From the NCBI GenBank assembly GCA_949317995.1, contig OX439040.1, positions 24,423,830-24,487,829 on the forward strand: a stretch of 64,000 nucleotides of DNA, in the 5' to 3' direction. Position numbers and translations under genes: made by a program. How positions within the stretch are numbered: the first letter of the stretch is position 1; every line of letters starts with the position of its first letter. The notes under the pieces were generated by a model. That model saw only the letters and a list, made by a program, of their open reading frames with translations, made no database searches and was not told the DNA's origin. Below, one piece after another: positions 22,501-60,139 of this stretch. Source of the stretch: Acholoe squamosa (Eukaryota > Annelida > Polychaeta > Phyllodocida > Polynoidae).

Positions 22501-23838
22501 CTATCCTTGAAGAGGTCTGAAGGCAAGTACCACCGACACTGATCCGCTTTCAAATGGTATAGGTTCCCCAGTCTTGTCTCTTAAGTATATCCCTATCTGT
22601 CTGAAGGTGGTTTTAGTGACTGGCAGATATATCAAGTTCTGGAAACTTATGGTCTGCATGTCACCGTTGTAGCGATTTATGTTGATTTGCCTGAGAAGGG
22701 GTGCTTTAGAATCACCCACAAGACTGTGCTTGACTATGTCAGAGTACACGAAAGCACATCGACTTTTGAACTGAAGGTCTACCACGTAGGGGCTTTGTGT
22801 CTTTCCACTTAGGAAAACACTTCCGTCAAAACCTAATTGTTTCCCTAAGTTTTCTGGGAGTTGCATGACCACACCAGGAGGCAAGGAAACTACACTTTTC
22901 ATTGTGTATTTGTTGTAGTGAAACACGGTGGCTTTGTTGTTTTTCCTGTAGTTTCTTAGTTTTCTCACCAACATGCTCTGTAGTTTATTTATGGTCCTGT
23001 TCAAGTATCCTATCAACTCTGAGTTGCTTTCCAGGTTCACACCTTCTAAGGCAAACATATTGTAGATACTACCTTCCTTGAAGTAATACTTAGACAGGTA
23101 TCTGCTAATTTCCTTGAAGCGTGTACATATTTTCACAGCCTGTAACTGACTGGGAGAGAGCGGAGAAACATTAGCAGAGTCTGTGAAGACGGCCTTTTCT
23201 TCAAAAAAAGAAAGAGACCTTTTTTCCCTGTCATCCATAGACATCACTTCAGCCACAGCCGACGATATTTCCCTTTTCTCTCTGCCTGCCGTGTCACGCT
23301 CCCCCTCAGCCTCCTCCTCTTCCTTTTCCTCCTTCTCTGGCGTGGGTTGGTTAGAAGTGAATCCTCCAGATGGCGTCTCAGTCGCAGCAGCAGGAGTTGG
23401 TGGACTTTCACTTGCAGGACCAGCAGGAGGAATGGTTTCAGTCGATCCCACAGGGTTGACATGACGTAGGTTTTTTGTTATTTTTACTCCTCTCTTCAAA
23501 GCAGATTGGGCTGATAAATTTGATGTAGAGCTTGAAGCTCTACTGAAGACACTATGGGCTCCTGGTTTTTCCAGAGGAAAAAATTCTCTTCTGCGTTTGT
23601 TCAATAAAGCTACTACAGAGCGGAGGTTGTTTGTCAGGTCGTTTTCTCCCTGTACCAAGAGGATGGGTTCTTCTTTGACGTTGTACCACGTGGTAGGACA
23701 GGTTATTTCTTGAAGAGCACACTCTAACTGAGTAGGAGAGTTAATGTATTCTGCCAAAATTGTATTGTAACTAGTTAAAGTGTTGTCAGGAAAAACGTTC
23801 ATAGATGAGTTACTAGGTAAAGTTAAGGTAAACGCCAT
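22501..23838 (-). CDS. PX: minor capsid (penton-like, single jelly-roll) protein (PX)
   Basis: 445 codons from the ATG at 23836-23838. This start gives the family-typical N terminus AFTLTLPSNSSMNVFPDNTL followed by ALQEITCPTTWYNV, seen at the start of Polinton penton homologues. A Pro/Glu-rich linker (residues about 135-195) follows. The C terminus has jelly-roll-like strands: HSLVGDSKAPLLRQI, ISFQNLIYLPVTKTTFRQIG and FESGSVSVVLAFRP. Pentons occupy the capsid vertices. The start lies 16 bp inside the integrase ORF, so the two genes overlap in different frames. The acidic/Pro linker is longer than I would expect and may be lineage-specific. Confidence 0.88.
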   Translation of the reverse strand: MAFTLTLPSNSSMNVFPDNTLTSYNTILAEYINSPTQLECALQEITCPTTWYNVKEEPILLVQGENDLTNNLRSVVALLNKRRREFFPLEKPGAHSVFSRASSSTSNLSAQSALKRGVKITKNLRHVNPVGSTETIPPAGPASESPPTPAAATETPSGGFTSNQPTPEKEEKEEEEAEGERDTAGREKREISSAVAEVMSMDDREKRSLSFFEEKAVFTDSANVSPLSPSQLQAVKICTRFKEISRYLSKYYFKEGSIYNMFALEGVNLESNSELIGYLNRTINKLQSMLVRKLRNYRKNNKATVFHYNKYTMKSVVSLPPGVVMQLPENLGKQLGFDGSVFLSGKTQSPYVVDLQFKSRCAFVYSDIVKHSLVGDSKAPLLRQININRYNGDMQTISFQNLIYLPVTKTTFRQIGIYLRDKTGEPIPFESGSVSVVLAFRPLQG

Positions 23839-24902
23839 TTGTTTATGTTTTTGACAGGTTCCCAAGAGTTAAACTTGTCTCCATAACCCTTCCACTTGAT
23901 CAAGGCTTCTCTTTTCTTGCCTTTTCCTCTGTATTTTACTATTTTTTCTATGTTGTAGCGTCTTCCGTGACGGACTTGGACCTTCTGGACCTCAGGTTCG
24001 TAGAAGCTTCCTTTTATCTCTTCTCCAAGGAGATCTTTCAGGTGATACCCTTTGGGCGAAATGTTGTCGACTGTGTATATTTCCTCAGTCCAGTTAGGTT
24101 CGTACCCTCTGTTAAATGTTTTCTTTGTTTTCAACATTCGCACTTGATTTTTTCTCTTCAACTGAAGGACAGGAACTTTTTTCTTTTGAGGTTGATCGTA
24201 CAACCTGTAGAACAAGACTTCAGAGTTGTCTTTATTTATGTCTGAAGGGGCAGCTCCTAAGGCTTTGTGGTAAGTCAAATTGTAGGACTTAACCAAGTCG
24301 GGCAGCAAGTCAACCCATTTGTAGTTATTGAAATGAGAAAAACATCTCCACATTTTTCCTTGTAAGGTAGAGTTGAACCTTTCGGCTAAGGCACACTTCA
24401 CGTCGTCGTTCTCTCCTGTGAAAAAATTGATTTTTTGATCTTCACAGTGTTTTTTGAAAATTTTGTTGACAAACTCTTTGCCCTTGTCAGTTTGAATTTG
24501 TTGAGGTTTTCTTTCTTTGCTCATTTTTTTGAAAGCCTCTGTCACGTCATCAGCTCTCTTACTTTTCACAGGTTGTCCAAAACCATACCTTGAAAAAACA
24601 TCTATTCCCGCTAGAATGTACTGGTATCCTTTGTTTTCCTTTGAAAATTCTCGCATGTCTATGAGGTCAAGTTGCCACTGTTTGTCTATGCCCCATGTTT
24701 GTGTTTTTCTTCTTGGAAATCTTCTCTTGTAAGGTTTGTGTCTGGTGTAAGCGTCTACATCTTCCAAAGCTTGTTCTATGTTTTTTTTCTTTGTTTTCTT
24801 GAAGTGATGACGTTGAAGTTTAGAAACGCTGGTGAAACTTCCAGGTTGTTTAGGATCTGTGTAAAACCTGAGCACATCTTTTTTCAAAGCCTTGTGCGCC
24901 AT
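23823..24902 (-). CDS. INT: retroviral-type integrase with C-terminal chromodomain (INT)
   Basis: 359 codons. The RNase H-like core shows the D,D35E triad: Asp79 in QWQLDLIDM, Asp139 in QTDKGKEF and Glu174 in ALAERFNSTLQ. Around it are YQYILAGIDVFSRYGF and YNLTYHKALGAAPSDI, typical of Polinton integrases. A C-terminal chromodomain spans about residues 310-356 (YNIEKIVKYRGKGKKREALI, KWKGYGDKFNSWEPVKNI), including the aromatic WEP segment, and may direct integration to methylated histone. The enzyme inserts the element with a 6-bp staggered cut, as observed here. It overlaps the penton gene by 16 bp and the upstream gene by 19 bp. Confidence 0.95.
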   Translation of the reverse strand: MAHKALKKDVLRFYTDPKQPGSFTSVSKLQRHHFKKTKKKNIEQALEDVDAYTRHKPYKRRFPRRKTQTWGIDKQWQLDLIDMREFSKENKGYQYILAGIDVFSRYGFGQPVKSKRADDVTEAFKKMSKERKPQQIQTDKGKEFVNKIFKKHCEDQKINFFTGENDDVKCALAERFNSTLQGKMWRCFSHFNNYKWVDLLPDLVKSYNLTYHKALGAAPSDINKDNSEVLFYRLYDQPQKKKVPVLQLKRKNQVRMLKTKKTFNRGYEPNWTEEIYTVDNISPKGYHLKDLLGEEIKGSFYEPEVQKVQVRHGRRYNIEKIVKYRGKGKKREALIKWKGYGDKFNSWEPVKNINKWRLP

Positions 24903-25840
24903 ATAAACTTACGTCCAGTTCCTTTTTGACTTACTTTCCTCTTCTTTATAGGGGAAGCTCTTTTCAAGGGACTGGCAGCAAAGGAAGGACTGTGCCCTGC
25001 AAAAGCCGACTTGTTTTTGACAAATTTTAAGGTGGGGTTCAGCCTTTTAACTGCTCTCATGAAAACCTGGCTTCCTTTAGGTTGGTCCTTTTTCAAAGAC
25101 TTTGGTCGGGCAGCAAAAGCTAACAAATCTGTTATGTCAGTTCCAGGCACACGTTCCCCGTTAACATATATTTCTCCGTCTCTGTTCCAATTCAAAATTT
25201 GACTTCCGTGACGAGATAATTCTCTGTATAGATTTTTAGCAGTGGTTCTGTAACTTGCAGGTATTCTTTCTTTTATGTCGGCGTCCATACCCTCTGTGTT
25301 GTCTCTTGCACGAGGTTTAAAGCCTTCCTCCCCTTTGAACTCGTCTACACTGTCTCCGTCTGAATCGTCAGGAAGTGGTGGATCGTCTCTAGTCTCTGTG
25401 AAAGTGTGGTCAGCATCATCGTCGCCGTCGTCGGTGTCTTCTAAAGAATTGTTTACTCCCCCAGCTGCTGCTGCTGCTGCTCCTGCAGGACCTTGTCCTA
25501 CTGCTCGACCAAAATAGGGACCTTCCCTACGTTGTCCTAAGGCCTTGGCTTTTTTAGTTAAAATTCCCGACTTTATCATAAGTTGATTGTACTGCCTTAA
25601 CTTTTCCTTCAGTTTGAGGTTAGGAGAGTTAAGCACCTCATGTGCTTTACTCTGAAGGTGGTTCAGGACTTGAACCAGGCTGGAATCAGGAGTTAAACCT
25701 TCTCTTAAAAGTTGAGTGCTGTAGTACTGGTCTTGAACACTAGGTCCAGGCTGGGGAGGAGAGGAAGGACTAACAAAAGAAGATTTTTTTTCTCGGGGAA
25801 CAAGATCCGCCCTTACGAGGGCCATCCTTGAATAAGACAT
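24884..25840 (-). CDS. Polinton core-like protein with NGERVPGTDITDLL motif
   Basis: 318 codons. Residues about 10-110 carry a Pro-rich head and helical region (LVQVLNHLQSKAHEVLNSPN). A low-complexity Ala/Asp-rich linker follows. The C-terminal conserved block reads LYRELSRHGSQILNWNRDGE, IYVNGERVPGTDITDLLAFA and VFMRAVKRLNPTLKFVKNKS. That block recurs in a protein found in many animal Polintons and adintoviruses; its function is not established, though a virion core role has been suggested from its position and basic tail. The start at 25838-25840 is the first ATG; a second Met follows five codons later. Confidence 0.65.
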   Translation of the reverse strand: MSYSRMALVRADLVPREKKSSFVSPSSPPQPGPSVQDQYYSTQLLREGLTPDSSLVQVLNHLQSKAHEVLNSPNLKLKEKLRQYNQLMIKSGILTKKAKALGQRREGPYFGRAVGQGPAGAAAAAAGGVNNSLEDTDDGDDDADHTFTETRDDPPLPDDSDGDSVDEFKGEEGFKPRARDNTEGMDADIKERIPASYRTTAKNLYRELSRHGSQILNWNRDGEIYVNGERVPGTDITDLLAFAARPKSLKKDQPKGSQVFMRAVKRLNPTLKFVKNKSAFAGHSPSFAASPLKRASPIKKRKVSQKGTGRKFIWRTRL

Positions 25841-26917: not shown

Positions 26918-27547
26918 TTAGACCAAAGTGACCAAAGGAGCAACCTCGTCCTCTTTTAAACCAGTAGAACCCTTGTTCAAACCTTCCACGTAAAGAGCTA
27001 CATCAGAAAGTCCCATGTTGTATAGACTGGCTATTAGGCAGCTTGGATGAGATATTTCTCTATATTTCCAAACCATCAGAACTTCGAACACAGGATTTGT
27101 GACACCTTTTTTCCCTGGAACAGGGGTGGATATCAGGTTAAGCTCGTGGTCGCTCATTCCAAGTTGAGTTCCCAGTTTCCTCCAGTCAAGCTTTTCGAAC
27201 TTGTCTGCCAGGTTGACGAACAAAGTATCAACTTTCCACTGTTCTGGAGGAATTTCACAATGGTCCACTACGTTGTAATATCCCATGTACCATCTACAAT
27301 AATCAGTTAGATCGTAACGACCTATGTCACTTAATGCATGTCTCAATACCATCCACTTGCAACGCACGTTCTTTCTACTCCATGAAATAAGCATTTCTCT
27401 CCCCATAGAACGAAGAGACGGTATTTTTTCCATGTAATCCATTAAACTTAGTCTAAGTCCTAAGTAAACTCCTAATCGAGGGTAGTCTTTTTCAGATATT
27501 TTTTCACTGACCTTGAATAACAACTCGTCCGAAAGGTGAAACTCCAT
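26918..27547 (-). CDS. predicted tandem Death-domain protein
   Basis: 209 codons from the ATG at 27545-27547. Two repeats of about 80 residues look like Death domains. The second is clearer: residues 107-188 with FVNLADKFEKLDWRKLGTQL (Trp122 at the canonical position), then ELNLI, then VFEVLMVWKYRE and CLIASLYNMGLSDVALYVE, matching the six-helix pattern l.....W..La..Lgl...ei..i......mL..W.......L...L....l.d.a. The first, residues 5-84, has DYPRLGVYLGLRLSLMDYME, MLISWSRKN and VLRHALSDIG. Death domains mediate apoptosis and innate immune signalling by homotypic assembly. A virus-like element could use such a protein to modulate host death-fold complexes; this is inference. It lies in the late-type block just upstream of the ATPase. 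Confidence 0.7.
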   Translation of the reverse strand: MEFHLSDELLFKVSEKISEKDYPRLGVYLGLRLSLMDYMEKIPSLRSMGREMLISWSRKNVRCKWMVLRHALSDIGRYDLTDYCRWYMGYYNVVDHCEIPPEQWKVDTLFVNLADKFEKLDWRKLGTQLGMSDHELNLISTPVPGKKGVTNPVFEVLMVWKYREISHPSCLIASLYNMGLSDVALYVEGLNKGSTGLKEDEVAPLVTLV

Positions 27548-27629
27548 AGCGTCCAAATAAAAAGTGTTGAGCAAGTAAGGCAGGCAGGTAGGAAGGCAGG
27601 CAGGTTATGACAGGCTAGAAAGCATACAG

Positions 27630-43306: not shown

Positions 43307-45046
43307 ATGTCTCAGCTCAGTTTTGATGTGAACGAGGCGAGTACGGAGGACTTGAAAGCCCTGCCGGGCATTGGGTCAGCGAGAGAAATTGTTCAGTGCG
43401 TTCGCGACCAGGGGCTTTTCTCAGATGTGACTGGGATGCTCAGATTCGTCAGCCCAGAGACCAGGGAGTACTTCAGGAGGCGGTCATTAAAGGCCTGGTG
43501 AAAATTGGGAAGAAAGGGGATAGTGCAGCGGACGTGACGGTCGTGTCCCCAGAAGAAGTCGATGCCGCGAAGAACTTCGAGGATTTGAAGGTGCTACTGT
43601 AGAGATCCATGGCACGGATAGAAGAGCTGGAGGCAGAAAAGCGGCAAAGGGAGGCCCGGGGAGTAGGGCAATCACCGACGGATCAGAAGGAGGGTGCGGA
43701 GCCAGAGTCGCACCAAGCATCGCCCGGGGCTGGCGCCACCTCGGCATCTACCGGGGCCACCGCAGGGCGCCCACATGGCGACACGCTCCCAAACGATGTA
43801 GCGGAGACTCTGCAGGCCATTCTGCGGCAGAACCCAGCTCTCGCACAGAGGACATGGGCGGCGCTGAGTAGCCTGCACCGAGTGAAAGTTCCTTGCCACT
43901 CCATTCGACGCCCTACCAGAAAGGGACGGTTAGGGCAACGTGTATGTCCCGAAAGGTCCACAGCCATACCCGCAGAGGGCACCCGCTGACTGGAATGGCA
44001 ACACAGGGACTGATGACCGACAGCACAAGGCACCTCGTTCACCTGTGAGCCAGGCCAGCGCCAAAGTGCTGAAGGAGTCGAGGAAGAGCAGGCAATCAAG
44101 GATCGAGGACACAGACTCCTCGGACTCCGATGACAGTTCATCGAGCTCAAGTGATGAGGACGAACCCCCAATGCACAGAGCAAGGGACGGCAGAGATAAA
44201 CCTCACCAGGGAAAGATTCCCACCTACGACGGTCGCTTGAAATGGGGGATCTACAAGGAGCAGTATGAAAGAATTGCTCGTAGATGCGGATGGGGCAGAG
44301 AGGAGAAGATCGACAGCCTCGTGCAACATCTGAGAGATGATGCCCTCGTATTCTTTGGGTCGCTGCCCAGAAAGACCCGGCGTGACTACAAAAAAGTCTG
44401 CAAGGTGCTGAAGGGGCGATTTGGAGCCAGAAAACAACCGGCAACAGCACGCAGGGAGCTCCAAAACCTGCGTCAGGAACCTGATGAGGTGCTGGATGCA
44501 TTTGCACAGCGGTGCATGGATTTGGCGAGGGAAGGGTTCAGAGGGGACTCGGAACGGACCATTGAGAAAGCAGCAGTTGACTCCTTCTTGCAGGGCTGCT
44601 CTGAACAGAAAGCTGCGCTGATTGCGGGGGAAAAGATCCTGAAATCGATGAGGGAGGCGATAAAGAGTGTCAGGCATTCCATCCACAATACCAGGTTTAT
44701 TTTGGGGGACAAGAAGATCAGGAATGTCTTCTTCTCGGGCAATGACGAGATACATCCCGGCGTGTTACGCCTGGAAACAAGCCAGCTTACAGAACTGAAG
44801 GAGGATATACGTAAGATGGTTGTATCTGTTGTCAATGACCAACTACACCAACACCAACAGCGCTCCCCCAGAGCCCCTAGCCCCTACCCAAGCTACAGGC
44901 CGGGCAGGAGCCCTGCGAGAAGCCCTGGGCGCAGCCCCTCCCGCAGCACATCACCTGAAAGGCCGAGTGAATGTTACAACTGTGGGGAGCAAGGGCACTT
45001 TGCCAGAGAGTGCACCAAGCCAAAGCAACAGCCACCAAAAAACTAG
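43307..45046 (+). pseudogene. gag: Gag of the Gypsy element (frameshifted)
   Basis: Starts at ATG 43307 with a helix-hairpin-helix-like head (EASTEDLKALPGIGSAREIV). The frame breaks near 43,490 and continues in the next frame (VIKGLVKIGKKG) and again by 43,940. The main part, 43940-45046, has an Asp/Ser-rich linker, a capsid-like domain (IPTYDGRLKWGIYKEQYERI, LRDDALVFFGSLPRKTRRDY, LRQEPDEVLDAFAQRCMDLA) typical of Gypsy Gag, an SR/Pro-rich tail (RPGRSPARSPGRSPSRS) and the nucleocapsid CCHC knuckle CYNCGEQGHFARECTK. It ends at TAG 45044-45046, just after a slippery heptamer. Confidence 0.85.
45037..45043 (+). promoter_or_regulatory. -1 ribosomal frameshift slippery site (A AAA AAC)
   Basis: The heptamer lies in the correct phase of the gag frame directly before its TAG stop. 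The -1 frame continues open (KKLARNGLDLIPFQADQGRP) to 45213, toward protease. A_AAA_AAC is a canonical slippery sequence. A downstream stimulatory structure was not evaluated. Confidence 0.65.
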
Positions 45047-45604
45047 CCAGGAATGGACTGGACCTGATTCCATTCCAGGCTGACCAGGGTCGTCCACCAG
45101 ATATAGATCAAGGACAAACACCAGACTTAGTTACTGGAGACTCTTGTGCCGATGCCAACTCCCGCACGGTGCGCGCTGTGAGGGATTGGGTTAGGCATGA
45201 AGAGTCGGTTTGAAGCTGTCAAAGGTCGCCCCCCAGAGAACGCCAAGGTACGGCAGTGGCAAAGGCCAGACGTTCCCACTGAGGGCCCTCACTCTGATGC
45301 TAAATCCTACATGGTGCACACTGTAGAGGATGGTGCAAGACGTGAGGACCCTCGGATACGTAATGTCTACTTCCATACAAAGAACTCTATAAAAGACGCC
45401 CCTGAGAGTCTTGTCCTACCAGTTGTAATCAATGGGACCTCAGTAAACGCTCTGATTGACCTAGGTGCACAAGTGTCTGTGCTCAGCTCGAACTTTGTAG
45501 AAAGCATGGAGCGCCCTCCTACACGAAAGGAGACCATTAAGTTGAAAGGGGCTGGGCCAGACAGCTTCATGAAGGGCCACTTCACAGACACAGTGAAGGG
45601 GACC
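45047..45604 (+). pseudogene. pol: retropepsin region of Gypsy Pol, 5' part
   Basis: The -1 frame runs to 45213; the frame from 45197 then carries the protease: LVLPVVINGTSVNALIDLGA followed by QVSVLSSNFVE. The usual catalytic D-T/S-G reads D-L-G here, which probably inactivates it. Just past residue 135 the LINE inserts (junction about 45605-45608). The frame continues in phase at 54247, where the C-terminal protease motif VILGLDFF is found. Confidence 0.8.
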
Positions 45605-45803
45605 ATGAGTGAGTAGTCGCGCTGGATTTCGCTCGCTGGGTTCTTGGTATTTTTGGACTGATTGAAGGCAAGGATTACTATAAGAACTGTCACAGAGTGA
45701 TATGAACTATCTGTGAACCCGCTGGTACATGTGGATTTATTGATTATACTACGGGTTGGTCATAATTCTATAGTTTTTGCTGAGTTTCTTGGTTTTCTGT
45801 AAC

Positions 45804-46805
45804 ATGAAAGTAGTGCTAACTGCTTGTGGAGTCAACATGGATTGTCTAACTGATACACGAACTAGATGCCATCATATGGAAGGGACACCTAATGCTAGGA
45901 AGAGGAAGTACTCTAGAGATTCTTCTGGTAAGGGGAGTCCAACACAAGGACAATTATCTAAAAAAATCAGCTTGGATGATACTCCTACATCGGTCCAATG
46001 GGACTATTTCCTGAATGGAGGTGTGTTAATGGGTAACCAGGGAGTAGAAAGGTCTACTGTTGTTGAACAACTACCTCCCCCACCAACTACCAGAGGTGAG
46101 AAAAGCTCAGTTGGCTCTAGCAGCCTAGAGAATGTAAATACCATAAGTGCTCTAGCTAAAATGATTGCTGAAATGAACATCAATCTAACCAATAGTATCA
46201 ATGACTTGAGTACTAACTTGAGGCAACATAAAGCACTAGTAGCAAGCAATACAAACCGTTTAAACATACATGAACAGCAGATTAACACCCTACAGGGAGA
46301 GGTGAATTCAATAAAGGCTGAGTGTAAGAGTAGATATGAATATGCTACAAATGTGAGTGGGCAATTAACTGGTTATAAGGAGGAGGTGAAAAAAGACATG
46401 CAAAAGTATTCTGAAACACAAAAAGGCCTTAAAGATGAAATTGAAAACATCAATCAAAGGCTGAATAACCAGGAGCCTATAAACATTGATCAGTTAAAGG
46501 ATCAGTTAATTGATGAATTAGACATTGATAAACTAGTAGAGTGTGCAGTATCAAAGAGATTACAGGAGAGTGAGCAAAGAGATGACAACTACATTACTGA
46601 AAGGCTAGATGAAGTTGATTCACTAAGAGAGAAAGTGCAGTCACAGCAGGTAATGATAGATGGTATGATTGCAAAACAATTAAGTGTGCCAGAAGTGGGT
46701 CAATCTACTACAGGCCTGAGTACTAAAGAGGAGACCAGGAATGTGTTAAGTATGTGTGCAGGTGTAGTCAAACAGCTTAGTGGTGTCAATGATTGTACAG
46801 TATAG
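45804..46805 (+). pseudogene. LINE ORF1, coiled-coil N-terminal half
   Basis: 333 codons from the ATG at 45804. A basic head (EGTPNARKRKYSRDSSGKGS) precedes a long predicted coiled coil (residues about 115-300: ALAKMIAEMNINLTNSINDL, NTNRLNIHEQQINTLQGEVN, EVDSLREKVQSQQVMIDGMI). Coiled-coil trimerisation followed by an RNA-binding domain is the classic ORF1p layout. Here the frame ends at a TAG at the border of the 2.2-kb foldback, and the RNA-binding half is found on the other side at 49061. The two were probably a single ORF before that insertion. Confidence 0.75.
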
Positions 46806-49060
46806 GATAGGTCAGTCCATACAGTCCTATAGTGAGGGCCAACCCCCCTCTACCCCCCCATGAAACTAGGTGACCTTGTGTGTTCAGTATTGGGCCCTAT
46901 ATAGGATAAGGGGGTTTATGGAGCTATCATGTATCTTCCTGAAAGGGATACCAAATGAAATGAAGAGACCATCTAAGCCAAAAAATCCTGCTGAATCCAA
47001 AAATGTTGGTCTTTCTTATCAAAATTTGACCAAAAGTACCCGAAAATGATGTTTGATGAGGGAAATACTTTTAAAAATGTACAAAAATTATATTGAAAAT
47101 GATTGCAAATCTTTAAATATAGAACACATAAATCAGAGGTAATACCTTAATCCAAATACCCAAATGTCTGCCTATCTCTGTCAGGCAAGTTCTGGGCTTG
47201 TGCATTATTCTGCCTATCCCACATACAGCATATCAATTGTGTACCTATCACTCATCCTGCCTATCTCTTCAATCTGAAACATTGTCAGTTCAATCTGGTT
47301 ATCTCTTAAAAGGCCTAACTTATAATGCTTATCCCTCACCTTACCTTATCTCATTTGTTCCTTCTTTCCTTTAGTCTACCTATCCTCAATCTGCCTATCA
47401 TTCATTTTACCTATCCCTCATGGTGACTATCCCTCAGACCATCATGTTTAATCTGCGCTGTTTGTCTGCTATATAAGCCTTTATTGTTTAACGGTACATT
47501 CCTTACCATGTCTACTATTTCAATTTTACCTATCCCTGATAATGCCTATCATGTAGCCTACCTATCCCTCATTGTGCCTATCCCCCAACTCTGCACATCC
47601 CTCATATTTGACTTGCATATCTGTCCCTAGGATGTATGTTTTTTTGTTTTTTTTTTTTTTTACGTTTGCTCATCTTACAAGGTACTCTGTGCCTATTCCT
47701 TAAATTGCTAATTGCTCATACTGCCTATCCCTCTTGCTACCCATCCTTACCTATCCCCCATGCACTCTATACAGCTCTCTTACCCATCTCACCTCTCTTA
47801 CCTACCTATGTCACATCCAACCTTCATTATGATGACCATTTCTTAGTCACCCTATCACCTAACATACTGGTTACAGTCCACCTTATTCACACATCTACCT
47901 ATCATTCATGCTGCATATCTTTCAGTTTACCTATATAATGATATGAATGGAGGATAGGCATAATGGGGGATAGGTATATTTCACAAGGCATAGACCTGGA
48001 GACAGGTGGAAGAAATTGAACACAAGCTGAGATATGTATAGAGAGAGTGAGTTAGATTGACTGAGCTGAAATGGTAAGAAAACCATATGGAGAGCATGAG
48101 GGATAGGTATTCAAAAGGATTGGTAGCAAGGGGGATAGGTAGCATGTGCAATATCTAGTTTGAAGGATAGGCACAGAGAGTACCTTGTAAGATGAGCAAA
48201 TGTAAAACAAGAAAACATGGGTGGTAGCGACAGATGGGCAAGTCAAATATGAGGGATATGCAGAGTTGGGGGATAGGTATAATGAAGGATAGGTAGGCTT
48301 TATGATAGGCATTGTTAAGGATAGGTGGGATCAAAATGATAGACATGATAAGCAATGTAACTGTTAACCATTAGGGCCTAAATAAACAGATGAACAATAC
48401 AGTTTAAACATGGTGGTCTTAGGGATAGTCACATAAGGGATAGGTAAAATGAATGATAGAAAGACTGAGGATAGGTATACTATGGGAAACTTGGACCAGA
48501 GAAGATTAGCTAAAGTAAGGAGTAAGCTTTAGTATCTAGGTCTTTTGGGAGATAGCCTTACTTCAAGATGCTTTAGATTTAAGAGATAGGCAGTATGAGT
48601 GATAGGTAGACTAAGGGATAGGCAGTATGTGAGATAGGCAGAGTAGTGCACAGTTAGAATACTTGTCAAATTGGGAGATAGGCAGACATTTGGAAATGTG
48701 CATTGAGGTACTAACTCTGGTTTACGTGTGTCTATAAAGACTTCTCATTATTTTGAATATTATTTTTGTACATCTTTAAAATATTTTCTTCATCAAACCT
48801 CATTTTCGGGTACTTTTAGTCAATTTCTGAGAATCATGATAAAAAATTTGGATTCATCAGGATTTTCTGGTCCAGGTGGTTTCTTCTTCCCCTTTAGTAT
48901 TACCCTGATAAAGGAATACCACAGCTCCATAAACCACCTAATCCTCTACAGAAATCAACAATGAAGACACAGGGGCACCTAGTTTCATGGGGGGGGGATA
49001 GAGGGGGGTGGCCTGTCACACTCTACCCATAGACTATGCTCTCAGTGACCTCTCCTATAG
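46806..49060. mobile_element. 2.2-kb foldback (long inverted repeat) element
   Basis: Two arms of about 1.1 kb mirror each other around 47,938. Examples: CATGAAACTAGGTGACC (left) against GGGCACCTAGTTTCATG (right); CCAAATGTCTGCCTATCTC against GGGAGATAGGCAGACATTTGG; AAAGTACCCGAAAATGA against CATTTTCGGGTACTTTTAG. Inner arms consist of a degenerate CCTATCCCTCAT-type motif and its complement. Possible 4-5 bp target duplication TATA or GTATA at the ends. No coding capacity; a transcript would form a very long hairpin. Confidence 0.9.
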
Positions 49061-50257
49061 TATAAGCTTCTTGGTGGTGTAAAGCATACACAGCCTACTC
49101 TAGAAAGGAACATCATTATTAAAGGTATACACTACCAATTTGGTGAAAACTTGTATGCTACCTTTGATGGACTATGTGTCGCTATGGGTGTTAGTTATGA
49201 CCCTTGGAACGATATCTTAGACATTAAACGTACTGGAAATGGCTGGAGATCGCCAATTAAAGTGTGTTTTTCTAACATGAAGATCAAAAGGGTTGTGTTA
49301 GATAACAAGTGGAAGTTGAAAACACCAGTAAAGGAAGACCAAGTGTGGATACAGCATGATGAGCCCAAAGAAGTGCGTGATCATAAAAGAAGAGTATGTG
49401 GGCTTGCAGTAAAAACGGGTTTTAGACCAAAGATGGTTGAATCTGGAGTAATTATTGACGGAAGCTACTTCCCAAACTCAAGGCTACATGAGGTCAATGA
49501 CTCACTGACCTTACCTGACATCTCAAATATGAACAGTATGCCTATCCTCAATAATAGCACAGATAAATCTGACAATTCTGTGAAAGAGAGGCATGAAGAT
49601 GTCAAATCAACACCAGCAAAATCTGACCCTAAACCAGGTACTAGTGCTGCCACTGAGGCTGAAATGAAATCGCCTGGTTCAATAAGCACTGATGATGAGG
49701 ATGAAGATGATGATGAAGATAATAGCACAGAAACTCATCAAAGGAAAACAAGGGCTGGATTAGTTTACAGAGGAAAGAACAGCTTCCTAAGTAACTGGTA
49801 TCCATGTTCTTTTGAGGCATATGTCTTAGGTCAGACAATGAAGTTCAACAGTGTCGAACAGGGTTATTTCTTTTGTAAACTCAAAGAATTGGGCTATCAT
49901 AGGCTAGCCGATGACATCATGAAAACCACAAGTGCTAGAAAAATTAAAAGCAAATGCAAGTTCTATAAAGCACCACCTGGTCACTATTGGCATAGTGTAT
50001 CTGAAACCTACATGAGCACCCTGATCAGTGCTAAATTCAATCAGTGTGAAGGGCCTAGAAGGAGCCCACTGGAAACAGGGTCTATTGCCCTGGTGGAAGG
50101 TTGTAGAGACTTGATCTGGGGTGGAGGGTTTGTATATCACTCAGACTGTTATGACCAGGGAAGAATTAAAGGCCAAAATCTGCATGGAAAAAATACTATG
50201 CGCATCAGGGATAGCATTAGAGATTATGAGAGGAGCAGACCACTGATTGTATTATAA
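49061..50257 (+). pseudogene. LINE ORF1, RRM-like plus NADAR domain C-terminal half
   Basis: Open from 49061 without an ATG until well inside, consistent with being the continuation of ORF1. An RRM-like ORF1p core comes first (ERNIIIKGIHYQFGENLYAT, SPIKVCFSNMKIKRVVLDNK, VWIQHDEPKEVRDHKRRVCG, IIDGSYFP). After an acidic linker (DDEDEDDDEDNS), the last 160 residues form a NADAR (YbiA-like) domain: FLSNWYPCSF, MKFNSVEQGYFFCKL, HYWHSVSETYMSTLI, LVEGCRDLIWGGG and GKNTMRIRDSI. NADAR enzymes act on ADP-ribose-related N-glycosidic substrates; some reverse guanine ADP-ribosylation in DNA. Within a LINE it may counter host ADP-ribosylation or bind such marks. Confidence 0.82.
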
Positions 50258-51060
50258 GTAGTGTTGCAACGTTAATCTTATGTCGCCATAGGTACAGCAT
50301 TGCGCTGCCCGCGAAATGGACGCAATGATATCTTTAATTTTGAGAAATGATACCCTTATTAGACCATGTGTTAAGTGCATATACTGAGTCAGAGCCATTT
50401 TTCCATTTTTTCTTTTTCTTTTCTTGTTATATCTTCAGAGGGGAGTGTATACCCTTAAGAAAGTAATTGCTTAGGTATAATAGTCTTGTGCAGCTAGGAA
50501 GTGAGTCACATAGAACAGAGCCATGGAACTACAAATGTGGTACAGAGTTGGTATTCTATTGATTGGAGATTTCAGGATTGTACTAACAGCGTTTTTTTTT
50601 TTTTTTTTTTTATTATCAATACACTTATCTTGTACTATGATATCTTGATACATTCTTAACCTGGGCTTCCCTAGCCCACTTAAAAGGGTCTATATCTCCT
50701 CTTTCCTATCCCCTCAGGATGTGTGTGGTGCACATATGCGCGGGCACTGACAGATTCCTCTGTTAAATTATCAACCTGTGAAGCACGGGATAGCCACTTA
50801 GTGCCGCTAAAGTGCTGTAAAGCACAAATCAATCAATCAATCAACATTCTTAACCTGATTCTTTCTTTTCTTAATTTTTATTAAACAAAATATATTTGTC
50901 TTCTATATCTATCCAAAAATCCCATCAACCCTTGCGATACCCAATCATAATAAAACAAAGTCCTATAACTATAATTACGGTGGGTGGGTTTTCCTCTGTG
51001 CTGTGTATAGCTGAAATTAAGTAGGCTCACAGACCAGTCTCCTCTTCCACGAGGTTAATT
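50258..51060 (+). other. LINE region between ORF1 and ORF2
   Basis: No gene. Contains a poly(T) run at 50591-50611 and the SINE-like insertion at 50664-50843. Confidence 0.6.
50664..50843 (+). mobile_element. SINE-like or truncated LINE insertion with (AATC)n tail
   Basis: 180 bp flanked by the perfect 14-bp duplication ACATTCTTAACCTG (50650-50663 and 50844-50857). The 3' end has a small hairpin (GTGCTGTAAAGCAC) followed by AATCAATCAATCAATCAAC. No tRNA A/B boxes that I can assert. Confidence 0.85.
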
Positions 51061-51495
51061 TTGTGGAAAAGAATACACTGTATTATTTATGTACATATTG
51101 ATTTGAATTCATTGTTTATTTGTCTTGTTATTAAATATCATTTGTGTACATTTTTCGTTTTCTATTACTGTATTCAACTCATGGTCTGTTTGATTAGCAA
51201 ATTCAGAGAGAAGAGGGGGCTGGTTTTCTCTTCTATTAATTGTAGGAGCTTTGAAGACAAGTATAGTGAGGTATATAAGATATTAGATAGGAGTGACATT
51301 ATCTGCTTATGTGAGACCTGGCTAAAACCAGGGTCTCCTGAGGGTTTGATAAATAAAGATGATAGGTTATTATATAGACAAGACAGAATAGGTAAAAATT
51401 GTGGAGGTGTGGGTCTCAGTGTGAAATCTGGTTTAGGTCAAACATTAAGATCATACCTGAATTCACTGTTCAAACAATTGATTATGAAAGTATAG
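51061..51495 (+). pseudogene. LINE ORF2, endonuclease N-terminal part
   Basis: Begins the APE-type endonuclease: LVFSSINCRSFEDKYSEVYK, SDIICLCETWLKPGS with the catalytic Glu, and DRIGKNCGGVGLSVKSG. The frame shifts near 51,400-51,490, and the domain continues in the frame of 51399-53036. Confidence 0.75.
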
Positions 51496-53036
51496 CGTGT
51501 ATGTTATGTGTGCCTGGTGAGAAAGATATATTTCTTATCTCTAAATACAGAATTCCTAATACAAATGTCCCTAATTTTATTGCGTTTTTAAGGAAAATTG
51601 CAGGTTTTGAATTTAACGGTAATAGAGGTAGACATGAGACATGGATCTTAGGTGACATAAACTTAAATATGTATGATGATACTGATGTGGGTTGTGAAAG
51701 CTTCAGATCCTTGTGTAAAGATATTGGTTGGAAAATTCTGATAAATGAAATAACCCGACCCTTCAGTGGAACCTGTATTGATAATGTAATTACCAATAGC
51801 CTTAATGTTATAGATTCAGGTACTATTTCGGCTTTGATTTCAGATCATGTGCCTGTTTATGTTTGCAGAGGGCATAACAATTTTACATATGAAAAATCGG
51901 TGTATAAGGGAAGGGATTATAGAAATTTTTCAGAAGATAATTTCAAAGATTTTTTGAATGCCTGTGATTGGAAAACATATTTTGATATTAAAGATAATCC
52001 AGATTTATTATGGGAAATGCTTGTAACTCCTATAAACCAATATCGGAACAAATATCATTCTTATGTTGAACGTCAAATCAAGAAAACTCATAAATCTTGG
52101 ATTGATGATGAAGTAATGGATTTAGTATTTGAAAGGGAAGGATGGTTAAGATTATATAGTGTTAACAAGGGTACAACGGAGAAACAGGCTATCAAAGACT
52201 GCAGAAGGAAAATAAGAAAAAAGATTAAAGCAAATCAAATTGGAGGAGTAATGCAAGAGTTACATGAATGTAATGGAAATCCTAAGAGGTTCTGGAAGCA
52301 TATTAATGACATGTTTAAGAATAATAAATCCATTATATACCCCGATATGAAACACCATGAGACAGGGATTGATATTGCTTCTGATGTAGCATGTGAGTAT
52401 GTGAATGAGTACTTTTGTAATATTGGAAGAGAGCTACATATTGCAGCGGTTGGTGATGATCAATGTAAACTTGATAATGATCAAAGTATTGAAAATGTAC
52501 TCATAAATAGAAACTTCACTGAAACAAACATTAAGGTAAATAAATGGGATGTTCATTACGCTATAAAAGAAATAGACAAAAATAAATCATCTGGGATTGA
52601 AGGCATAAGGGGTGATATATTACAATGTGCATTGCTATGCCTAATACATCAATCTACCCACCTGATTCAGACTAGTTTAGATAAAGGTATTTTTCCAAGA
52701 GACTGGGCCTCTGCCCTAGTAAAACCATTACCTAAGGATGGAGATTTATCACAGGTCAAAAACTGGAGGCCTATTTCCCTCCTACCAATGCCATCAAAGA
52801 TTATTGAAAAAAATATGTATTATCATTTAAGTGAAAGTATGAAAAGAAATAACACCTTTTGTGACAATCAATATGGTTATAAAAAAGGTACTGGAACAGG
52901 TGATGCTACCTTTGATCTCGTAAATGAATTGTTTGAGAATAGAAATAATGGGTACATAACAGGGGCCCTTTTCATTGATTTCACTAAAGCCTTTGATAGT
53001 GTAATTCACTCAAAATTGCTGGTCAAACTTAGTTAG
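51490..53036 (+). pseudogene. LINE ORF2, endonuclease C-terminal half and RT fingers/palm
   Basis: Endonuclease continues with FLISKYRIPNTN, WILGDINLNMYDD, NEITRPFSGTCIDNVITN and ISALISDHVPVYV (SDH catalytic box). The reverse transcriptase starts with LVKPLPKDGDLSQVKNWRPI, SLLPMPSKIIEK and QYGYKKGTGTGDATFDLV, then motif A LFIDFTKAFDSV. It stops at TAG 53034-53036, inside the palm. Confidence 0.85.
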
Positions 53037-53060
53037 CTTGGGCTAAGTAGGACAAATTTT

Positions 53061-53903
53061 ATGTGGTTCAAAAGTTATTTAGAAAACAGGCAACAGAGAA
53101 CGAGTTATGGTAATAAAATATCTAAAAAGAAATGTATAAAGTATGGTGTACCACAAGGCTCAGTTCTGGGCCCCCTGTTTGTTTTATATATAGATGATGT
53201 TGTTAATGTGTTGCAATCGTGTAAGATAAAATTGTATGCTGATAATATAGTAATCTATTGTGCTGCAAAGGACTCAGAGACCATTAAGAATATGATGTAT
53301 AATGATGTTCAACGTTTCAAAGCATGGGTTCTAGAAAACAGACTAACAGTAAATCCAAATAAGACCAAATTTATGTGGTTATGTAGTGCATTTAAATTAA
53401 AGTACTGTCCTGATCCAAAAATAGAATTCAATGAGAGTACTGTTCAAACAGTGACCTTCTTCCCTTATTTGGGAGTCCACATTGATAGCAAACTGAGCTT
53501 TGACAAGCAAATTAACATAGTTAAAAGAAATGTATGTAATAAATTATTTCGTTTTGCCAAATTAAGAAAATTTCTGACTCAAGATCAGAGTGTAAAGATA
53601 TATTGTAGTATAATAAGACCAATTATATAATATTGTTCCTTCATTTCAACTAGCTGTAATGATGAAGGTTTGAAAGCTTTACAACACTTACAAAATAGAG
53701 CCTTAAGGATATGTCTAAAATGCAACATTAGAAAATACAATGTTAAAGAATTACATATACTGTGTGATATAACTCTATTAGAAAAAAGGTTTGATATGCT
53801 TCTATTGTGTCTGATGTACAAAAAATCTAAAGATATAGAGCAAAGGCCACATGCACATAATACACGGTCACAAAATAAAATTGTTTTTGAATTACCAAGA
53901 TAA
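53061..53903 (+). pseudogene. LINE ORF2, RT palm end and C terminus
   Basis: Motif B is KYGVPQGSVLGPLFVLYIDD. The catalytic motif C reads YADNIVIY, so the second Asp of the usual ADD box is Asn; this should abolish polymerase activity. Thumb-type FPYLGVHIDSKLSFDKQI follows. A stop at 53628-53630 is followed by a further in-frame-like piece 53670-53903 (ALQHLQNRALRICLKCN, LHILCDITLLEKRFDMLL). Confidence 0.82.
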
Positions 53904-54246
53904 ATTTCCAGGCATTACAAGAGATCTCCATGGTATAGAGGGGTGGCGCTCTGGAATGTCCTACCTGAGAACATCCAGAAAGCCACCACTAAAGTCAAAT
54001 TTAAAACTGAAATACTGAAGATAGATAATTTGAGGCAGAAATTGAAAATTGGTTACAGCTAGTATATGAAGCAGGTGTAGTTAACGCGCCGCTTCCAGAT
54101 AATAGTGTTGAATCCTAATTACCATTATGTTACTGCCTAATACACTAACATGAATGTCAAATGTTATGTAAACCTTAGCTACTATACCAGTACATTATAT
54201 CTTATACTATCTTATAACAAAAATGCATGTGTGAACGGATGGACTC
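53904..54246 (+). other. LINE 3' end
   Basis: Non-coding; a remnant of the C-terminal frame (RYKSPWYRGVALWNVLPENI-type sequence) runs to about 54,060, then AT-rich 3' UTR with TACTATAC/ATATCTTATACTATC repeats up to the junction with Gypsy protease. Confidence 0.5.
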
Positions 54247-55919
54247 ATGTTCAAATGGCACAAGTATGTTGTGCCAATAATGGATTCTGTCATACTGGGT
54301 CTGGACTTTTTTAAAGCTGTAGGGGCCTCGATTGATCTCACAATGGCAACAGTCCAGATCAACGGTCACATTATCAGAGCTAAATATCGCCAGAGCAGGT
54401 CAGGCGACACATATGGGGTCTCCCCAGTGGTCTGCCTCAAGAGAGTTGTATTACCACCGCATTCATCCCGACAGGTAGCAGTGTGTACCAATCAGGGACC
54501 GGATGTGCCTGAAGGAGATCGGGTTCTGAGCCCAAGGCTCTTTCACCCGGATGTCTTGTGCCAACACAGTGTCCTAGATAAAAACTCAGACACAGCAGTA
54601 CTCGAGTTATGTAATGTCAGTGATAACTACGTCAAGGTCAAGGCAGGCCAGGTTCTCGGGTCGGCACAGCCCGGAGGGGTCATGGACTCGGAACTCGACA
54701 TGTCGACGGTGCCGGCTGGCCTTAGGAACTTGGAACATGAAGCCAAACAGCTAGTCTCGGCAGAGGATGTCGAAGACCTGGCGGGGCAAATACCACCGCA
54801 TCTTCACGATTTGTTCCACAGGTCAGCCTCAGTGCTCAATCTGGACCAGGCCCGAGAGCTGTGCACTATCCTTAAGGAGTACCAGTCAGTATTCTCAAAG
54901 GATGACACAGACCTGGGTTGTTTCTCAGCTATAAAACACACCATAGACACAGGGGATGCCAAACCCATCCGGCAGCGCATGCGCCCCACCCCATTGGGTT
55001 TCCAAGAGGAAGAGGAGAAGCATCTTAACAAGATGCTCGATGCTGGAGTAATCAGGCCCCTTATCATCCCCATGGGCTGCAGTCCCTGTGTTGGTACGTA
55101 AGAAAGACGGGTCAGTCCGATGGTGCCTCGATCATCGGGGCCTGAACAGTGTGACCATAAAGGATGCCTTCCCCCTGCCAAAAATCAAGGAGTGCTTAGA
55201 CTCACTGGCGGGAAGTCGGTTCTACAGCACCCTGGACATGAATTCAGGTTGCTGGCAGATAGAGCTCGACGAAGCTGATCAGCACAAAACAGCTTTCATC
55301 ACAAAGTATGGGCTCTATGAGTGGACATGTATGGGTTTCGGTCTATGTAATGCCCCTGCGACATTCCAGAGGGCAGTTCAGCTTGTTCTCCATGGTGCAG
55401 TGGAAGAAGGTTCTGTCATACCTAGATGACGTGGTGGTCTTTGGAAACAGCTTCTCCCAAGCCAGGGATAACCTGGTTGAAGCCCTAGAGAGGTTTGGAG
55501 AATATGACCTCAAACTTAAACCTAAGAAGTGCAGTCTGTTCCAAAACAAGGTCACATTCCTTGGCAGGCAAGTAACACCAGAAGGGATCCAGATAAACCC
55601 AGAGAGCAGAGAAACTATAGAAAAGTGGCCAACACCGAAATGTGTCAAAGACCTTGAATCATTCCTTGGGTATGCAAATTACCACCGTGAGTTCATCCCG
55701 CGGTTTGCTGAAATATCTGCTCCACTTTACGCCCTGACCAGCCCCAAGACGAAATTTGAGTGGTCAGGGGAGGCGGCCACAGCACAGTCCCTAATCAAGA
55801 GTGCGTTACTGGCAGCGCCAATACTACCGTACCCAGACGTCAGATACAAATTACCTGCTTGGGAGGCCCTTTCTCGTCAGGACCGACCACAACAGCCTCA
55901 CGTGGCTGATGGGCTTTAA
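54247..55919 (+). pseudogene. pol: Gypsy Pol: protease end and reverse transcriptase
   Basis: Resumes the protease frame (PIMDSVILGLDFFKAVGASI), then a spacer and [74 protein letters not shown] (motif A Asp), [14 protein letters not shown] (motif B) and [13 protein letters not shown] (motif C). The connection KKCSLFQNKVTFLGRQVTPE and YANYHREFIPRFAEISAPLY follow. Frames change near 55,090 and 55,375, so the protein is broken, though every catalytic residue survives in the fragments. Confidence 0.92.
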
Positions 55920-58200: not shown

Positions 58201-59199
58201 TTGCAGCCCAGATCAACAACTCTACTAGAGATGGATCAGAGCCAATCCACTTGGCCAACCCAGATGCCACCGAATGGGTTTGTCTTGGTCCCAATGCCAC
58301 TTCCACCAGCAGCAACAGCCAACATGGGTCAAACACCTCTTCTGTTTGGCTCGCCCTGGTCACTTGCACAGTGGGGGTCACCCCTTCCAATAATGGCGGG
58401 CCCGCTGATGGCTGGTTCCCCGGCCCTGAGGAATGGGACCGGGCCATTAGAACCTGCTAGAGACCACAAAGTTCCGTCACAGCAGGAACCGGGCCAGGAG
58501 GGCGCTGCCCCAACACCAGCAGTAGCACCTCCGGCAGCCAGCGAGGTTCGGCAGAGAGCTCATAGCCATGAAGTAGCCCGCCCAATACCAACGGGAATCT
58601 GTGTCACTTTCGCGAGTGGTACGGGTGGAGCTGCCGTGGAGGAAGGCAGTCAGCGGTCTGTCACACTGGCCACAGGCCACAGGAAGAGAGAATATGAGGA
58701 AGAGGAAGAAGTCAGAACGGTTACCATAGAAAGACGTCCCAGCCCAAATGAGAACCAGCCCAAGAGGTGTGGTACCGGGCTGCAGCCAGCGGAAAAGAAG
58801 CGACGTAAGACCAGCGCATGCCCAGTCTCGGACATGTGCAGCCGGTCAAACCACATCCATCGCCATGTGGTACAGTCTCATGTGCCCTTCTTCATCCAGC
58901 CAGAAACAGCATGCTGGGGCTGTCAGGAGCAGTTCACAAGACCGGGCTGTTTGACGTTGCATATGAGCAGGTGCCGCAGAGCAAGACCGTTTGACGATAG
59001 GATGTTGGACCGTTGGGCTGTGATGTGCGCAGGGATGCTTGAAGACCTGTCGCATTCCCTAGGTGTAAAGCGAGCCAACCTACACCACCTGCTGAACAGG
59101 GACACACTGGGTGAGATCTCGGTGGCACCATGTCAAGAAGCACTCATGGCACATTATGATCAGGCACTGGGGCTCACTGCTCCGGCGAAAGGATCATGA
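58201..59199 (+). CDS. accessory zinc-finger ORF of the Gypsy element
   Basis: The open frame covers 332 codons; the first good ATG is at 58231 (MDQSQSTWPTQ). The first 180 residues are Pro/Ala-rich and probably disordered. A basic patch (EKKRRKTSACPVSDMCSRSN) precedes two Cys/His clusters: CPVSDMCSRSNHIHRHVVQSH and CWGCQEQFTRPGCLTLHMSRC, which look like C2H2-type or variant zinc fingers. A helical C-terminal part follows. Its stop overlaps the next ATG (ATGA at 59196-59199), so the two ORFs may be translated in a coupled way. It lies inside the LTRs, downstream of integrase, and so is part of the element. The family is not recognised. Confidence 0.7.
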   Translation: MQPRSTTLLEMDQSQSTWPTQMPPNGFVLVPMPLPPAATANMGQTPLLFGSPWSLAQWGSPLPIMAGPLMAGSPALRNGTGPLEPARDHKVPSQQEPGQEGAAPTPAVAPPAASEVRQRAHSHEVARPIPTGICVTFASGTGGAAVEEGSQRSVTLATGHRKREYEEEEEVRTVTIERRPSPNENQPKRCGTGLQPAEKKRRKTSACPVSDMCSRSNHIHRHVVQSHVPFFIQPETACWGCQEQFTRPGCLTLHMSRCRRARPFDDRMLDRWAVMCAGMLEDLSHSLGVKRANLHHLLNRDTLGEISVAPCQEALMAHYDQALGLTAPAKGS

Positions 59200-60139
59200 A
59201 TCCGCCACCAAGTGAAGGATGCTTGCTTCACTGGCGTGTACTGGCACCGCTCTTGGCGCTTTGTGACCAGAACACCCGACAAAGAGTCAAGACACCAAAT
59301 GAGTCAGCTGGGTGCCTGGGGGTAACCCTTCCACCCGGCTTTGATGCCCACTGTCACCTTCGCCAGTTGGCCAGAAACTCCACCAGGTCCACTGTCTATA
59401 ACAAAGGCTGGCGGAGGAACCTCTCTTCCCTTACGGTAGTTGATGTCCAATGCTACCCGGGTGACTGGGGACGCATGGCAGATCTCCCGGGGGTGGGAGT
59501 GCTACGAGCAGTGGGCCTACACCCAGCAATAGTTCCGGAACGGCTGGAGGAGTTAGAGGATCTGCTAAACCGGACCCGTGAGGCAGCGACCCAGGACGTC
59601 GTCGCGTTGGGAGAGATCGGCATCGACCTCTACCATAGCGAAGGCCATGGCAGGTCCTGGCCCAAGAGGTGGCACTGGCCAATGTAGCCTTCATGGCTGC
59701 AGAAAGGAGACTGCCAGTCGTGGTCCATACACGCGACAGGGGTGATGGACGGGCTGGTAGGATGTGCCGACAGGTCCTCACACAGATACTACCCAAGAAA
59801 CACCGTATCCAGCTCCACAGCTTTGACGGGGGCCTTGCAGAGCAGAGGGCCTGGGAACAATCATTTCCGGAGGTGTCCTTCAGCATCTCTGCATTGCTGC
59901 TACGCTCCAACCACCATCCAGAGCTGGAGAAGGTAGTACAGAACATCCACTTGGACAAGCTGCTCCTGGAGACTGACAGTCCATACCTTTCCCCCCCTGG
60001 AATCCGTCCCAGTCAGCATTGCCCAGAGTCAATCCTGGAGGTTGCCAGACGTATAGGGGAGCTGCGGGGACTGCCCCGTAGCATCGTACTAAGGATTGAC
60101 GCACGGAACGCGGAGGTGTTCTTTGGGCCTCAGTCCTAA
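59196..60139 (+). pseudogene. TatD-type metal-dependent hydrolase carried by the Gypsy element (frameshifted)
   Basis: Two overlapping frames (59196-59687, 59669-60139) together show a TatD family domain: GFDAHCHLRQL (HxH metal site), GVGVLRAVGLHPAIVPE, VVALGEIGIDLYHS (metal Glu), LANVAFMAAERRLPVVVHTR (metal His), IQLHSFDGG (His) and KLLLETDSPYLSPPG (catalytic Asp). TatD enzymes are Mg-dependent nucleases/hydrolases of the amidohydrolase TIM-barrel fold. The frame breaks once, near 59,660. The N-terminal 40 residues link to the zinc-finger ORF by the ATGA overlap. Sitting between integrase and the 3' LTR, it looks like a captured host gene. Confidence 0.85.

What the first reader, a model, noticed from the sequence alone, without database searches (positions are those of the whole stretch)
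49061..50257. NADAR domain fused to a LINE ORF1 protein
Directly after an ORF1p-type RRM-like core, the frame carries a clear NADAR/YbiA-like domain (FLSNWYP, SVEQGYFFCK, ALVEGCRDLIWGGG and GKNTMRIRDSI). NADAR proteins process ADP-ribose-linked N-glycosides, and some remove ADP-ribose from guanine in DNA in bacterial defence settings. A retrotransposon carrying one suggests a counter-measure to host ADP-ribosylation or a role at damaged target DNA. The two domains share one uninterrupted frame, so fusion is seen directly.
Basis: partly seen in the sequence, partly recalled or inferred. Interest (0 to 1): 0.9.

Follow-up and report, generated by a model that had tools for sequence, protein, structure and literature searches.

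The report
ADP-ribose-removing domain in LINE retrotransposons
Many different LINE retrotransposons in this genome carry, fused to their RNA-coating protein, an enzyme domain of the family that strips ADP-ribose off guanine in DNA and RNA, with its active-site residues kept, which suggests that these genomic parasites guard their own RNA or DNA against that modification.

Summary
The fusion is real and not a one-off. Window 49081-50257 is the C-terminal part of a LINE ORF1: RRM/CTD region, acidic linker, NADAR (PF08719, E=4.9e-21). A 97%-identical copy has ORF1 in one 729-aa open frame, and subfamilies at about 72, 62 and 51% keep the fusion. Genome-wide, 150 of 150 scored NADAR matches (3224 first-look candidates) pass Pfam's cut-off. 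A LINE ORF2 lies downstream in 24 of 24 opened loci and in 6 of 6 taken at fixed list positions. NADAR occurs in L1-like and in non-L1 LINEs. The catalytic E-K-E is kept: 42/42, 38/42 (rest R), 41/42. NADAR changes far less than the linker beside it. One paper (PMC12477816) mentions NADAR-like ORF1s of oyster Tx1 LINEs; my searches listed nothing on other clades, selection or catalytic state. Best mechanism, inferred: ORF1p carries a guanine-ADP-ribose hydrolase onto the LINE's own RNP. Structure, activity, clade names and host are untested.

The parts
45601..54184 (+). extent of the LINE by similarity to copy L029 (includes the foldback insert)
   Evidence: blastn of window 45001-55000 against L029: first match starts at 45601, last ends at 54184
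45804..46786 (+). ORF1, N-terminal part: MKVV start and coiled-coil region
   Evidence: open frame 45774-46805; same start MKVV in L029-L032; junction with the insert from L029
46787..49080 (.). foldback insert in ORF1, counted with one copy of the imperfect target duplication TTAGTGGTGT / TTGGTGGTGT
   Evidence: inverted arms; absent from L029
49081..49516 (+). ORF1, RRM/CTD region (L1 type II ORF1p-like)
   Evidence: conserved with P0001 and 15 ORF1s; profile A3 matches LINE-1 ORF1p; no Pfam match
49517..49738 (+). acidic, fast-changing linker
   Evidence: aa 153-226 of the frame; highest nonsynonymous rate of the three parts
49775..50221 (+). NADAR domain, YbiA type
   Evidence: PF08719 E=4.9e-21, aa 239-387; E39, K46, E119 of A1
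50255..50257 (+). stop codon of ORF1
   Evidence: end of the open frame
51181..54062 (+). ORF2 remnant (endonuclease and reverse transcriptase) with a frameshift and stop codons
   Evidence: frames 51025-51495, 51396-53036, 53037-53630; Exo_endo_phos only 16.2 bits, below its cut-off of 24.5; RVT_1 E=4.6e-12 and 1.7e-15

Best explanation
The window holds a dead copy of a LINE whose ORF1 protein is an L1-type (type II) RNA-coating protein (coiled coil, RRM/CTD) with a C-terminal YbiA-type NADAR hydrolase. SHOWN: the domain is present in many copies, four related subfamilies and several other LINE groups of this genome, with catalytic residues kept and changing far less than the linker beside it. 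INFERRED: ORF1p binds the LINE's own RNA, so the fused NADAR sits on the ribonucleoprotein and removes ADP-ribose from guanines of the template RNA, the cDNA or the nicked target DNA, protecting reverse transcription and integration from guanine-ADP-ribosylating enzymes of the host or its surroundings.
For: Pfam match; 42 of 111 genome matches run from RRM to the end of NADAR; intact ORF1 frames of 729, 768, 713 and 767 aa in four subfamilies; collinear ORF1s in 15 loci; ORF2 downstream in 24 of 24 and 6 of 6 loci; catalytic E 42/42, K 38/42 (rest R), E 41/42; pN of NADAR 0.14-0.30 against 0.45-0.58 in the linker, p 1.1e-15 to 1.4e-8; profile match to LINE-1 ORF1p and to NADAR structures. Published: NADARs hydrolyse guanine-linked ADP-ribose in DNA (PMC11543638) and were the only hydrolase family that did so on RNA (PMC11833690); passages read.
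Against: No structure, activity or expression. K46 is R in 4 of 42. NADAR changes somewhat more than RRM/CTD in two of three comparisons (p=0.056, 0.041). Within families pN/pS of NADAR is 0.59, 0.13 and 1.59. Relative P0001 ends in the acidic stretch without NADAR. 13 of 111 matches cover the RRM side only and 16 the NADAR side only, which may be truncated or frameshifted copies. The source of the supposed modification in this host is unknown.
Confidence: 0.5

Rival explanations
1. The domain is a working NADAR but acts on soluble NAD-derived signals (such as cyclic ADP-ribose of a host defence) rather than on the element's own nucleic acid.
For: Catalytic residues kept. PMC9503650 (passages read) argues for soluble targets of phage NADARs.
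Against: Fixed fusion to an RNA-binding ORF1p rather than a separate protein; for viruses of eukaryotes the same paper favours macromolecular targets.
Confidence: 0.15
2. The domain is an N-glycosidase or binding module with another substrate (riboflavin intermediates as in E. coli YbiA, RNA processing as PMC12477816 suggests) and has nothing to do with ADP-ribosylated guanine.
For: YbiA acts on riboflavin intermediates (stated in PMC11543638, passages read); LINE NADARs are far from the tested ones (21-31% identity of the window's to all but its own subfamilies in A1).
Against: The ADP-ribose-contacting W (W83) is invariant in 42 of 42 and the catalytic triad is kept; P. nicotianae, E. coli YbiA and phage T4 NADARs all act on guanine-ADP-ribose (PMC11543638, PMC11833690).
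Confidence: 0.25
3. The domain is kept only as a structural tail, for folding or RNP assembly of ORF1p, with no catalysis.
For: K46 is R in the L1-like L015, L019, L020 and in L010; the NADAR surface was not examined.
Against: Both catalytic Glu are kept in 41-42 of 42, in domains only 21-31% identical to the window's outside its subfamilies.
Confidence: 0.09
4. A one-off chance fusion or assembly artefact in this copy.
For: The window copy itself is broken.
Against: Many copies on many contigs and intact fused frames.
Confidence: 0.01

Closest known systems
Tx1 LINEs of Crassostrea gigas with NADAR-like ORF1 (one sentence in PMC12477816; passages read)
   Same: NADAR in the ORF1 protein of a LINE; the L015/L019/L020 copies here are L1-like and may be of this kind (the name Tx1 is recalled)
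   Different: the window clade is not L1-like; that paper gives no test of catalysis, selection or other clades in the passages I read
Gypsy elements of Ectocarpus with NADAR at the N-terminus of Pol (PMC12477816; passages read)
   Same: a retrotransposon carrying a YbiA-family NADAR
   Different: LTR element, Pol and not ORF1
Type II (L1-type) LINE ORF1 proteins (PMC4120745; passages read)
   Same: coiled coil followed by an RRM/CTD region
   Different: added C-terminal NADAR; the term ADP-ribose does not occur in that survey of 448 Jockey-superfamily elements
DarT1-NADAR toxin-antitoxin systems (PMC11543638; passages read)
   Same: NADAR fold family and catalytic Glu and Lys
   Different: bacterial, stand-alone antitoxin with Asp at the third position; here Glu as in the YbiA group
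NADAR domains in polyproteins of animal RNA viruses (PMC9503650; passages read)
   Same: fused in a replication protein of an RNA-based parasite; a counter-measure to host ADP-ribosylation is proposed there
   Different: viruses, not genome-resident retrotransposons

Membership tests
NADAR (PF08719) | match to the curated profile over its cut-off | tested here: met
   76.1 bits against 35.1
NADAR (PF08719) | catalytic Glu and Lys shared by the superfamily (E43, K50 of P. nicotianae) | tested here: met
   E39 and K46 in the window; E 42/42, K 38/42 with R in 4; mapping by motif onto 8bau is my inference
NADAR, YbiA subfamily | Glu at the position of E125 (Asp in BC4488, His in phage NADARs) | tested here: met
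   E119 in the window, E in 41 of 42
NADAR (PF08719) | YbiA fold and guanine-ADP-ribose hydrolysis | not tested
   the structure job failed; no assay possible
LINE (APE-type non-LTR retrotransposon) | ORF2 with endonuclease and reverse transcriptase downstream of ORF1 | tested here: met
   window: RVT_1 E=4.6e-12 and 1.7e-15, endonuclease match below cut-off; relatives of this ORF2 in L029-L032
Type II (L1-type) ORF1p | coiled coil upstream of a single RRM and CTD | tested here: met
   profile A3 against LINE-1 ORF1p, E=1.5e-5 over positions 54-217; part of the score may come from the coiled coil; no fold test
L1/Tx1 LINE group | ORF2 closely similar to L1 ORF2p | tested here: not met
   window RT fragment: no L1 match at E<=0.1; relative L031 35 bits, against 353 bits for L020
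Jockey superfamily (CR1, L2 and kin) | place in an RT tree with named reference elements | not tested
   no reference RT library at hand; likeness of the motifs to CR1/L2/Jockey is recalled

The most novel reading that the evidence does not exclude
Guanine ADP-ribosylation of nucleic acids restrains retrotransposons in this lineage, and LINEs have answered by building a NADAR hydrolase into the protein that coats their RNA: a module found in several distant LINE groups of one genome, through one ancient fusion, repeated capture or exchange of whole ORF1s.
Probability: 0.25. Interest if true: 0.92.

Novelty: new variant of a known kind. Interest (0 to 1): 0.76.

Why it matters
It points to nucleic-acid ADP-ribosylation as a force acting on retrotransposons in an animal-type genome, a role known so far mainly from bacterial toxin-antitoxin and phage conflicts. 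It offers many natural NADAR sequences tethered to RNA-binding proteins for testing substrate and specificity. It also poses a clear evolutionary question: one ancient ORF1-NADAR fusion, repeated capture, or swapping of ORF1s between LINE groups.

Tried and rejected
Homologues elsewhere: the single-sequence search gave only P0001 at E<=1e-3 among 6558 candidates. The ORF1-NADAR profile A3 gave none of 6925 candidates at E<=1e-5, so the spread of the fusion to other species is not established here; the choice of candidates by exact words may be to blame. Viral contigs: none confirmed for P0001 or for the window fragment.

No fold search was therefore run.

Host transferase: a search of the genome with PF22596, which I recall as the Scabin-like family, did not complete. 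A genome search with the window's ORF2 did not complete and I did not repeat it.

Set aside: a weak NarE match in the extra ORF of L024 (E=0.0011, 19.7 bits against a cut-off of 27), taken as chance since that ORF resembles by eye the SGNH-like ORFs of other loci. The hhalign of A1 with A4 (100%) is inflated because both hold the window sequence. A tblastn run failed on a wrong option and was repeated.

Full report
CHECK. The 398-aa frame at 49061-50257 matches NADAR (PF08719) at aa 239-387 with E=4.9e-21. Compared with copy L029, the LINE part of this frame begins at 49081; 46787-49080 is a foldback insert with inverted arms, counted with one copy of an imperfect ~10-bp target duplication. 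In this copy ORF1 is therefore 45804-46786 plus 49081-50257 and is broken; ORF2 is broken too. The LINE (45601-54184 by similarity to L029) lies between a Gypsy-type gag with zinc knuckle (43934-45043) and frames with a Gypsy-like pol look (from 54235, by eye; the first of them has no Pfam match).

OTHER COPIES. The genome (1.48 Gb, 63 contigs) gave 150 scored matches to PF08719 out of 3224 first-look candidates, all 150 over the cut-off; by my count of that table 143 of 150 have no stop inside the match. These are the best-scoring candidates, so the share of broken copies overall is not known. The two best (L001, L002) look like host genes: they fall among stand-alone NADARs in the tree. The window fragment has 111 matches (2420 first-look candidates, 104 scored). 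By script 42 of 111 run from one end to the other (start <=12, end >=388) and 67 of 111 cover part of the RRM and at least 70 aa of NADAR; 13 cover the RRM side only and 16 the NADAR side only. By my count the 42 are the window itself, 11 at 94-97% identity, 24 at 70-72%, one at 65%, four at 61-62% and one at 51%. Representatives with an open fused ORF1 are L029 (729 aa), L030 (768), L031 (713) and L032 (767), lengths stop to stop, at 97, 72, 61 and 50% identity to the window fragment in A2.

SPREAD OVER LINE GROUPS. I opened 20 more NADAR loci, chosen for long open frames and variety; some are near-copies of each other. All 20 have NADAR in an open frame of at least 447 aa. All 24 loci (with L029-L032) have a match to the ORF2 of another locus downstream on the same strand. 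To guard against my choice I took six places at fixed positions of the list: 6 of 6 have a LINE ORF2 downstream. Fifteen ORF1s align as coiled coil, RRM/CTD, NADAR. Their profile matches 8bau (NADAR, E=1.2e-27), 2b3w (YbiA, 4.5e-23) and human LINE-1 ORF1p (2ykp, 1.5e-5); RRM-only L1 chains match weakly (2ldy 0.014, 2w7a 0.11), and many coiled coils match too. In L011, L016, L017 and L028 I see no RRM, and an SGNH-like stretch follows NADAR (by eye).

TREES. The NADAR tree gives seven LINE groups: window+L029-L032; L009/L010/L013/L014/L021; L018/L024; L011/L017/L028; L026/L027; L015/L020; L022. The RT tree supports the first three and the pairs L011/L017 and L015/L020 (both near-copies). It does not support L028 with L011/L017, and puts L026 and L027 in one weak fork with L015/L020, though their ORF2s are 58% identical. 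L018 has a very long RT branch. Deep order is unresolved. L020 is L1-like (353 bits to L1 ORF2p); L017 is far from L1 (95 bits); L031 and the window are not L1-like. So NADAR sits in at least two distant kinds of LINE, and probably more.

FUNCTIONAL STATE. The catalytic Glu, Lys and Glu of P. nicotianae NADAR (E43, K50, E125; PMC11543638, passages read) correspond by motif to E39, K46 and E119 of A1. In 42 LINE NADARs (window and 41 loci, near-copies included) they are E 42/42; K 38/42, with R in L010, L015, L019 and L020; E 41/42, the exception (L040) perhaps an alignment shift. W83, at the place of an ADP-ribose-contacting Trp, is 42/42; W126 is 34/42. Between subfamilies synonymous sites of RRM/CTD and NADAR are saturated. 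Nonsynonymous differences per site, L029 against L030, L031 and L032, are 0.14, 0.24 and 0.30 in NADAR, 0.09, 0.18 and 0.33 in RRM/CTD, and 0.45, 0.49 and 0.58 in the linker. Linker against NADAR gives p=1.1e-15, 1.4e-8 and 1.4e-9; RRM against NADAR 0.056, 0.041 and 0.31. Within families pN/pS of NADAR is 0.59 (10 copies), 0.13 (7) and 1.59 (4 copies with few changes); these mix selection with decay after insertion.

ORIGIN. Profile A1 finds 1190 stand-alone relatives, of which 120 were listed; those listed with an organism name from NCBI are invertebrate animals. In a tree with 33 of them and the two host genes, the 18 LINE NADARs need two changes of label and stand apart from the host genes; a single LINE clade is not rejected (AU p=0.425), with warnings on long branches. 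One ancient fusion, repeated capture and ORF1 exchange cannot be told apart. PMC4120745 (passages read) reports reticulate ORF1 evolution in Jockey-superfamily LINEs.

MECHANISM. NADARs remove ADP-ribose from guanine in DNA (PMC11543638) and were the only hydrolase family of those tested that did so on RNA (PMC11833690, passages read). C7 NADAR did not act on uracil-linked ADP-ribose (PMC13036486, passages read). An ORF1p that coats the LINE RNA would place this activity on the template, the cDNA and the target site (inference). Six edible clams show N2-guanine ADP-ribosylation of DNA, and CARP-1 was cloned from one (PMC11209040, passages read). Whether this host is a clam or has such a gene was not shown. 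NADARs also occur in polyproteins of animal RNA viruses (PMC9503650, passages read).

PRIOR ART. PMC12477816 (passages read) reports NADAR in Ectocarpus Gypsy Pol and, in one sentence, in ORF1 of several Tx1 LINEs of oyster. Searches for NADAR+retrotransposon, YbiA+LINE+ORF1, NADAR+transposable element+ADP-ribos and a wider set on molluscs and LINEs listed no other report of NADAR in LINEs. The library holds open-licence papers only, and searches listed 20 of 104 and 25 of 10,570 papers. The bivalve LINE survey PMC10294476 was looked at in passages; it is not among the papers holding YbiA, LINE and ORF1 together.

Noticed in passing
window 26918-27601 (-): A Death-domain ORF (PF00531, E=3e-13) beside ORFs that look by eye like a Polinton/Maverick element; the neighbouring integrase frame (23823-24905 -) has a chromodomain.
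   Followed up: no
window 59160-60136 (+): A TatD-type DNase split over two frames (PF01026, E=2.9e-11 and 2.1e-24) shortly downstream of the Gypsy-like pol frames.
   Followed up: no
L009, L010, L013, L014, L021, L024, L031, L032 between ORF1 and ORF2; L011, L016, L017, L028 inside ORF1: SGNH-hydrolase-like ORFs or stretches accompany NADAR in many of these LINEs (by eye; only L013 has a Pfam hint, Lipase_GDSL_2 E=0.0025, below cut-off).
   Followed up: partly
window 46787-49080: A 2.3-kb foldback element with long imperfect inverted arms and many GATAGG-type short repeats, inserted in the LINE's ORF1.
   Followed up: partly
   Followed up: partly
L024 and L025: Two NADAR LINEs on different contigs have ORF2 identical over 946 aa, which suggests very recent copying.
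   Followed up: no
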